Of a DNA stretch of 64,000 nucleotides, positions 1,661 to 30,114 are shown in pieces. Numbering within the stretch: position 1 is the stretch's first letter; every line of letters begins with the position of its first letter. The stretch covers positions 2,108,205-2,172,204 of the forward strand of contig OY997650.1 in the NCBI GenBank assembly GCA_963921795.1, in the 5' to 3' direction. The DNA is from Nannobrachium achirus (lineage: Eukaryota; Chordata; Actinopteri; Myctophiformes; Myctophidae). Under the pieces are notes generated by a model, which saw only the letters and a list, made by a program, of their open reading frames with translations, had not been told where the DNA came from and did not search any database. The translations under genes were made by a program, and so were the position numbers.

Positions 1661-1848
1661 GTCCTTCACAACACGTTGATCAGTGATCCATCCAGTCTGG
1701 CTGTTGATTGGGTGGCAGGAAACCTGTACTGGTGTGACGGTGGCAGGAAGACCATAGAGGTGTCCAAACTAAACGGGTTGTACAGAACAGTCCTGGTCAA
1801 CACCGGTCTGGACCGGCCATGGTCCATGGCTGTGGATGTACGCTACGG
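1661..1848 (+). CDS. Exon A3: LRP1-like propeller blade, unit 1
   Basis: Enters in phase 0 after gattgacag and leaves in phase 2 at ctacgg|gtaag. It encodes one YWTD-type blade (NLYWCD, then TIEVSKLNG) followed by the start of the next (MAVDVRYG). It is the first exon visible; the two upstream exons of this propeller should lie left of the window, because unit 2 has them. The variable positions DPSS and GG differ from unit 2 while the framework is identical. Confidence 0.85.

Positions 1849-30114: not shown

What the first reader, a model, noticed from the sequence alone, without database searches (positions are those of the whole stretch)
1661..30114. A receptor that appears to fuse LRP1-type modules to an SRCR array and a signalling tail
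Seen: 24 exons with proper junctions sum to an open 5385 nt, and every junction between the LRP and SRCR halves is phase 1. Known: LRP1 propeller/EGF/LDLa modules and fish M130-like SRCR/Ig/tail proteins are separate families. Inference: one type I receptor, LRP-(propeller-EGF-LDLa)x2-SRCR7-Ig-TM-tail. I know of no described vertebrate receptor with this order.
Basis: partly seen in the sequence, partly recalled or inferred. Interest (0 to 1): 0.88.

Follow-up and report, generated by a model that had tools for sequence, protein, structure and literature searches.

The report
Chimeric LRP-SRCR receptor gene family
This fish genome holds a family of genes whose open, splice-ready exons join LRP1-like propeller modules to an SRCR scavenger-receptor array in one reading frame, and because what is predicted to be one face of the propeller varies far more than the rest, the product is likely a variable recognition receptor.

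Summary
In detail: 24 exons with AG/GT internal borders sum to an open 5385 nt (1794 aa), and both joints between the halves are phase 1. The fusion inference is strongly supported by the window's own genome. Two paralogous loci carry the same order, LRP module x2 - linker - SRCR x7 - Ig - TM - tail: one open from ATG to stop (1876 aa), one open from the first linker to stop (1848 aa). Of 30 strong tail loci, 22 have an LRP exon within 60 kb upstream on the same strand and none on the opposite strand. The joint exon (24705-24737) matches the linker behind the signal peptide of teleost M130-like proteins; copies of it sit between LRP modules. A signal-peptide exon homologous to the C13 paralog's lies 8 kb upstream of the window. 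Across six propellers, 32 of 57 loop sites assigned to one face vary against 10 of 136 elsewhere; dN/dS is 1.88 against 0.64, though dS is also higher in the loops. No transcript was seen. None of 360 listed database relatives has both domain types. Function as a variable, probably immune, receptor is inferred.

The parts
1661..1848 (+). E1: propeller exon of LRP module 1 (homolog of E9)
   Evidence: AG/GT, open frame
2391..2596 (+). E2: propeller exon, module 1
   Evidence: 91% aa to E10
2733..2918 (+). E3: propeller exon, module 1
   Evidence: 79% aa to E11
3333..3481 (+). E4: EGF exon, module 1
   Evidence: identical to E12
3763..3856 (+). E5: LDLa exon, module 1 (calcium-site motif DCGDRSDE present)
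4352..4375 (+). E6: linker exon EPTHTTP between the LRP modules, homologous to E14
   Evidence: paralog versions LQTEPTHTTP / LQTKPTHTTP
4723..4808 (+). E7: first propeller exon, module 2 (starts in phase 1)
4932..5048 (+). E8: propeller exon, module 2
6992..7179 (+). E9: propeller exon, module 2
7921..8126 (+). E10: propeller exon, module 2
10274..10459 (+). E11: propeller exon, module 2
11319..11467 (+). E12: EGF exon, module 2
14652..14748 (+). E13: LDLa exon, module 2 (ends phase 1; calcium-site motif altered, DCGEQRSDE)
24705..24737 (+). E14: 33-nt linker exon [10 protein letters not shown] joining the LRP and SRCR halves, phase 1-1
   Evidence: best of 283 33-nt pseudo-exons against 38 distinct linkers of relatives
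24851..25150 (+). E15: SRCR 1
25577..25882 (+). E16: SRCR 2
25973..26290 (+). E17: SRCR 3
26441..26746 (+). E18: SRCR 4
26836..27135 (+). E19: SRCR 5
27415..27717 (+). E20: SRCR 6
27821..28120 (+). E21: SRCR 7
28493..29269 (+). E22: Ig-like exon, expanded by internal repeats and a tail-like segment
   Evidence: (weak Ig match)
29429..29517 (+). E23: transmembrane exon
29638..30114 (+). E24: tyrosine-rich cytoplasmic tail exon with stop

Best explanation
The window holds most of one gene of a multigene family in which phase-1 modules of LRP1-like propeller, EGF and LDLa domains lie, with copies of a short linker exon, upstream of and in frame with the SRCR array, Ig, TM and tail of a teleost M130-like receptor; it is predicted to be spliced as one transcript and likely makes a variable recognition receptor. 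Shown by sequence: exon borders, phase, open frame, the same order at two further loci, a signal-peptide exon before the LRP modules of the C13 paralog and its homolog upstream of the window, none detected between the halves, and linker copies at both kinds of joint. Inferred origin: an LRP1 fragment entered the phase-1 intron beside the linker exon by exon shuffling, and [linker + LRP module] was then duplicated together. Inferred mechanism: the type I protein stands on an SRCR7-Ig stalk, and the propeller loops with dN/dS above 1, assigned to one face, contact varied ligands (microbial or host). Ligand binding would cluster the receptor and lead to phosphorylation of tail tyrosines (YEEI, YEEV, YEEM, YQRI, YNRV), recruiting SH2 proteins by analogy with WC1, whose YEEL phosphorylation is reported to be required for its effect on T-cell activation.
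For: Frame and phase. E14 scores 10.6 against a profile of 38 distinct linkers of relatives; the next of 283 open AG-33nt-GT pseudo-exons scores -1.6. E6 and E14 are homologous: gapped score 46, best other place 28, over 15906 windows. The five LRP1-like proteins printed have no such linker: their chain runs into (E)EP(F/Y)LIF and from DEPADC into P(E/A)FKC. No signal-peptide exon in 14749-24704 (0 candidates with hydrophobicity >=2 and donor >2 bits; 2 in an 18.8-kb control stretch). Signal-peptide exon before the LRP modules in the C13 paralog; homolog at C13:2100137 upstream of the window. C13 paralog open ATG to stop, 28 exons, 1876 aa; C8 paralog open from linker to stop, 27 exons, 1848 aa. 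Family-wide order: 22 of 30 tail loci with LRP within 60 kb upstream on the same strand, 0 of 30 on the opposite strand; E14-type linker followed within 8 kb by a tail in 14 of 22 and by LRP in 0 of 22; E6-type followed by LRP in 26 of 39 and by a tail in 0 of 39. Foreign modules near this site in relatives: kringle in P0017, VWA in P0104. Selection: loops assigned to one face 32/57 variable against 10/136, p 8e-13; dN/dS 1.88 against 0.64; 0 of 192 label rotations reach 32. WC1 motif: PMC2906472, one section and passages read.
Against: No transcript or protein was seen; the joint spans a 10-kb intron full of minisatellite and other repeats. None of 360 listed database relatives combines the domains. 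8 of 30 tail loci have no listed LRP hit, so members without LRP may exist; 11 of 30 also have an LRP exon within 60 kb downstream on the same strand, as expected in gene clusters but weakening the upstream count. The start of module 1 in the window gene lies in a stretch that reads N. dS is itself five times higher in the loops (0.127 against 0.025), so gene conversion sparing the loops may explain part of the contrast; the 15 pairs are not independent. Between the two window modules alone dN/dS (1.64) is not significant, and introns differ by 3% when poorly aligned stretches are counted (82 of 2753). Faces were assigned from the YWTD motif and recalled topology, not from a model. The last LDLa has an altered calcium motif. 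Some donors are weak. Immune expression, ligand and signalling are untested.
Confidence: 0.8

Rival explanations
1. Two neighbouring genes: an LRP1-derived gene ending after the LDLa exon and an independent M130-like SRCR gene.
For: 10-kb intron between the halves; SRCR-only M130-like proteins abound; E14 resembles the linker found right after an M130-like signal peptide; AATAAA/ATTAAA motifs occur after E13 at 18064, 18978, 20965 and 21994; the text just before E14 can be read as a signal-peptide-like [12 protein letters not shown] (tblastn 0.001); 8 of 30 tail loci have no listed LRP hit.
Against: No signal-peptide exon found between the halves; [12 protein letters not shown] has no nearby start codon and fits an acceptor tract, and the isoform pair P0245/P0272 suggests an intron there in a relative; in the C13 paralog a signal-peptide exon lies before the LRP modules; order and strand kept at 22 of 30 loci.
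Confidence: 0.07
2. The fused gene is real but serves a non-immune role, for instance in eggs or sperm, where fast evolution is also common.
For: No expression data; LRPs act in oocytes (recalled); varied loops alone do not name a tissue.
Against: The SRCR-Ig-tail half is related to M130/WC1-type genes (their immune role is recalled and in PMC2906472), with a tyrosine-rich tail.
Confidence: 0.2
3. Decaying repeats or assembly error: pseudogene pieces brought together.
For: Dense minisatellites; some family tails carry stops; internal repeats in the Ig exon.
Against: Three loci with open frames over 24, 28 and 27 exons; dN/dS 0.64 outside the loops and 0.30-0.47 among even SRCR domains; two cysteines, recalled to pair as C2-C7, lost together in all three even SRCRs of the window gene.
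Confidence: 0.05

Closest known systems
Teleost M130/M160-like (CD163/WC1-type) SRCR receptors
   Same: Signal peptide, 11-codon linker, tandem SRCR domains, Ig-like region, TM, tail starting NIELDYYNL-like; up to 61% identity in local alignments and 63%
   Different: LRP modules between signal peptide and SRCR; two cysteines lost in even SRCRs; tail 159 aa with 16 Tyr against a median of 44 aa and at most 7 Tyr in 125 SRCR relatives
LRP1 (propeller - EGF - LDLa segment)
   Same: Propeller-EGF-LDLa in the same order, module 2 66% identical to a teleost LRP1-like protein, module ends at matching points
   Different: One LDLa per module instead of a cluster; no NPXY; joined to SRCR domains
WC1 (gamma-delta T-cell SRCR co-receptor)
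   Same: Multigene SRCR family with a YEE(I/L)-type tail motif (PMC2906472)
   Different: Mammalian; no LRP modules (recalled)
M130-like proteins with a kringle or VWA domain near the signal peptide (P0017, P0104)
   Same: Foreign module inserted at the N-terminal end, before the SRCR array
   Different: One unrelated domain each, no LRP module; in P0104 it follows the linker

Membership tests
LDL receptor family (LRP1) | YWTD propeller followed by EGF and LDLa | tested here: met
   Pfam hits; 66% identity
LDL receptor family (LRP1) | Clusters of LDLa repeats | tested here: not met
   One LDLa per module; also at the two paralogs
LDL receptor family (LRP1) | NPXY endocytosis motif in the tail (recalled) | tested here: not met
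   No NPXY in the 1794 aa
Group B SRCR receptors (CD163/M130/WC1) | Each SRCR domain on one exon, tandem array | tested here: met
   Seven exons, phase 1-1
Group B SRCR receptors (CD163/M130/WC1) | Eight cysteines per domain (recalled; six also occur) | tested here: inconclusive
   Six in each of 7 domains; at the matched motifs relatives keep C2 in 526 of 529 and C7 in 358 of 367, here both are lost in 3 of 3 even domains
Group B SRCR receptors (CD163/M130/WC1) | Signal peptide directly or via linker before SRCR 1 | tested here: not met
   LRP modules stand between, (C13 paralog); none found directly before SRCR in the window
Group B SRCR receptors (CD163/M130/WC1) | Type I TM and tyrosine-motif tail | tested here: met
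   (by sequence only)
Variable immune receptor family | Many copies with diversity focused on a binding face | tested here: inconclusive
   Many copies and loop-focused diversity in six modules; binding untested

The most novel reading that the evidence does not exclude
A previously undescribed vertebrate immune-receptor system: dozens of chimeric genes in one fish in which the LRP1-type YWTD propeller has become a hypervariable recognition head on an SRCR-Ig signalling stalk, diversified by duplication, gene conversion and positive selection of one face, comparable in logic to variable lymphocyte receptors or WC1.
Probability: 0.5. Interest if true: 0.95.

Novelty: new variant of a known kind. 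Interest (0 to 1): 0.88.

Why it matters
It appears to catch exon shuffling in a vertebrate with the evidence still in place: the host gene's linker exon, a symmetrical phase-1 module from LRP1, and joint duplication of both. It gives a large gene family in which a propeller fold known from lipoprotein and Wnt receptors appears to be used for variable recognition, with testable contact sites. It also suggests that annotation pipelines may split or drop such genes: no annotated relative with both domain types was among the 360 listed hits.

Tried and rejected
E14 as an LRP exon: first assumed from its likeness to E6, dropped when M130-like N-termini showed the same linker. [12 protein letters not shown] before E14 as a signal peptide: rejected (no nearby start codon; the isoform pair P0245/P0272 suggests an intron there). 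LDLa divergence between modules as diversifying selection: dropped, because the second LDLa is the same type at all three loci, so the difference is positional. dN/dS of the two window modules alone (1.64) is not significant against synonymous sites (p 0.45). The intron comparison (26 of 2288) left out three poorly aligned stretches; with them it is 82 of 2753 and the excess of replacement changes falls from p 7e-11 to p 8e-4, with no excess of silent changes (p 0.49). My first pseudo-exon control had only 9 members and was replaced. Nine paper searches (listings seen; passages of two papers and one section of one read) showed no LRP-SRCR receptor in their listings. The PDB sequence searches only confirmed the families. 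Structure prediction was not tried, because the spliced protein is not letter-for-letter in the DNA.

Controls and rows left out: one search used 30 tail rows (all with E <= 2.4e-38 of 159 matches, whose listing is cut), 102 LRP places (the rows overlapping exon E10 among 131; 29 rows on other exons dropped), and 72 of the 74 zero-mismatch linker rows (100 rows listed, 229 counted). C20:13054234 and C436:21918 were left out by oversight; with the latter the E6-type count is 26 of 40. The reversed-pattern control gave 4 matches against 229. E14's profile score is below 34 of the 38 linkers in the profile and above 4. The signal-peptide scan looked only for ATG exons with a phase-1 GT donor.

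Full report
What was checked. The internal borders are AG/GT, the sum is 5385 nt, the frame is open to a single final stop, and the two joints between the LRP and SRCR halves are phase 1. Pfam finds Ldl_recept_b, an EGF-type domain and Ldl_recept_a in the first half and seven SRCR stretches in the second; the Ig match is below its cut-off, but teleost M130-like proteins carry a similar Ig region.

The joint exon. Teleost M130/M160-like proteins begin with a signal peptide such as MDHLLMLLLLLWSS, a glycine or alanine, a ten-residue linker such as LQAEGKHNST, and then SRCR 1. E14 (24705-24737) has the length to encode that linker, is phase 1-1 and reads [10 protein letters not shown]. Scored against 38 distinct linkers it is first of 283 open AG-33nt-GT pseudo-exons in the window, 10.6 against -1.6 for the next; 34 of the 38 linkers score higher than E14 themselves. 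So E14 is most likely the SRCR gene's own second exon. E6 (4352-4375), between the two LRP modules, is homologous to E14 (score 46, best other place 28). In the C13 paralog the three linkers read LQTEPTHTTP, LQTKPTHTTP and LQFKPTHNST; Polymixia's M130-like protein P0034 has LQTEPTHET at this site. The five LRP1-like proteins printed have no linker there: the EGF runs into (E)EP(F/Y)LIF and the LDLa into P(E/A)FKC. The LRP module (E7-E13) begins and ends in phase 1, as insertion into a phase-1 intron requires.

No separate start. In 14749-24704 no ATG exon with a hydrophobic core and a usable phase-1 donor was found. In the C13 paralog the same scan finds an exon MDGAGIWMVFLLLLFS with a phase-1 donor before the first linker and the LRP modules. 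Its homolog MDGAGIWMVFLLLLIS is at C13:2100137-2100185, 8067 bp before the window and on the same strand. Of the 100 kb fetched upstream, the 5 kb just before the window read N, so the link from this exon to the window's exons is not read; in the other 95 kb the peptide search found no LRP or SRCR exon.

The family. The window lies at C13:2108205-2172204 of a 1.66-Gb genome. The LRP module, the linker and the TM/tail exons recur. Of 30 strong tail loci (the window's included), 22 have an LRP exon within 60 kb upstream on the same strand and none on the opposite strand; 11 also have one downstream on the same strand, as clustered genes would. E14-type linkers are followed within 8 kb by a tail in 14 of 22 cases and by LRP in none; E6-type linkers by LRP in 26 of 39 and by a tail in none. 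Two loci were read across the joint: C13:2340000-2300001 (minus) has 28 exons with AG/GT borders, open from ATG to stop, 1876 aa; C8:41.500-41.528 Mb has 27 exons, open from the first linker to stop, 1848 aa, its signal-peptide exon not found in the fetched stretch. The order is linker - LRP - linker - LRP - linker - SRCR x7 - Ig - TM - tail; in the window's gene the start of the first module is unseen.

Selection. Between the two window modules, 20 of 57 sites in the loops assigned to one propeller face differ against 4 of 136 elsewhere. With six modules from three loci the numbers are 32 of 57 and 10 of 136 (p 8e-13); dN/dS summed over 15 pairs is 1.88 in those loops and 0.64 elsewhere. Rotating the loop labels along the chain never reaches 32 (0 of 192, highest 29). 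Cautions: dS is also five times higher in the loops (0.127 against 0.025), and the EGF exon differs by 0-1 nt from the first among the six modules, so gene conversion that spares the loops is likely and may carry part of the signal. Introns of the two window modules differ by 1.1% in the best-aligned stretches and 3.0% over all aligned ones (82 of 2753), against dN 6.2% and dS 3.8% in the exons. Even-numbered SRCR domains are constrained (dN/dS 0.30-0.47); odd ones range from 0.63 to 1.74. Faces were assigned from the YWTD motif and recalled propeller topology (the D-A and B-C loops share a face).

How it likely works. The product is predicted to be a type I membrane receptor. The variable propeller loops would bind ligand, the SRCR-Ig part would serve as stalk and possibly as a second binding part, and the 159-residue tail carries 16 tyrosines including YEEI, YEEV, YEEM, YQRI and YNRV, with no NPXY. 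[quoted passage not shown] Signalling through SH2 proteins is the favoured, untested, reading.

Novelty. Among the 360 listed hits (120 each of 3192, 2987 and 5086) none carries both Ldl_recept_b and SRCR; a motif cross-check agrees. These lists favour proteins with many repeats, and candidates were limited by length, so a chimera could have been missed. PMC10855680 (passages seen) names LDL-A, EGF and FXa_inhibition as SRCR partners; YWTD repeats were not in the passages seen. The paper searches listed under Tried and rejected showed no described LRP-SRCR receptor. The architecture is new to me; its parts are known.

Limits. No RNA or protein evidence; one genome; family counts are lower bounds, since the search scores only the best candidates; the gene's first module is partly unread.

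Noticed in passing
14737-17595: 42 copies of a 68-bp minisatellite (98% match) whose unit contains the 3' end of exon E13 and its 5' splice site (read), so dozens of decoy donors follow the real one.
   Followed up: partly
28493-29269: The Ig exon E22 contains a 56-nt stretch 86% identical to the cytoplasmic-tail repeat in E24, in frame, giving a YEEI segment in the ectodomain; it is also present at the two other loci read.
   Followed up: partly
14652-14748: The second, membrane-proximal LDLa has an altered calcium motif ((G/E)EQRSDE for GDRSDE) at all three loci read, while the first keeps it.
   Followed up: partly
25577-27717: The even SRCR domains 2, 4 and 6 lack two cysteines (C2 and C7, recalled to pair) that nearly all listed relatives keep at the matched motifs (526 of 529 and 358 of 367).
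   Followed up: yes
41213-41268 (+) and 51493-51548 (-): Two Rfam matches to mascRNA-menRNA above the gathering score, possibly tRNA-like repeats.
   Followed up: no
about 43767-51252: Array of roughly 330-bp repeats on both sides of the N gap 49090-49289.
   Followed up: no
G000 C4, C10, C21, C3, C2, C14: Large clusters of SRCR exons in this genome (2589 first-look candidates, 150 scored), apparently well beyond the LRP-SRCR family.
   Followed up: no
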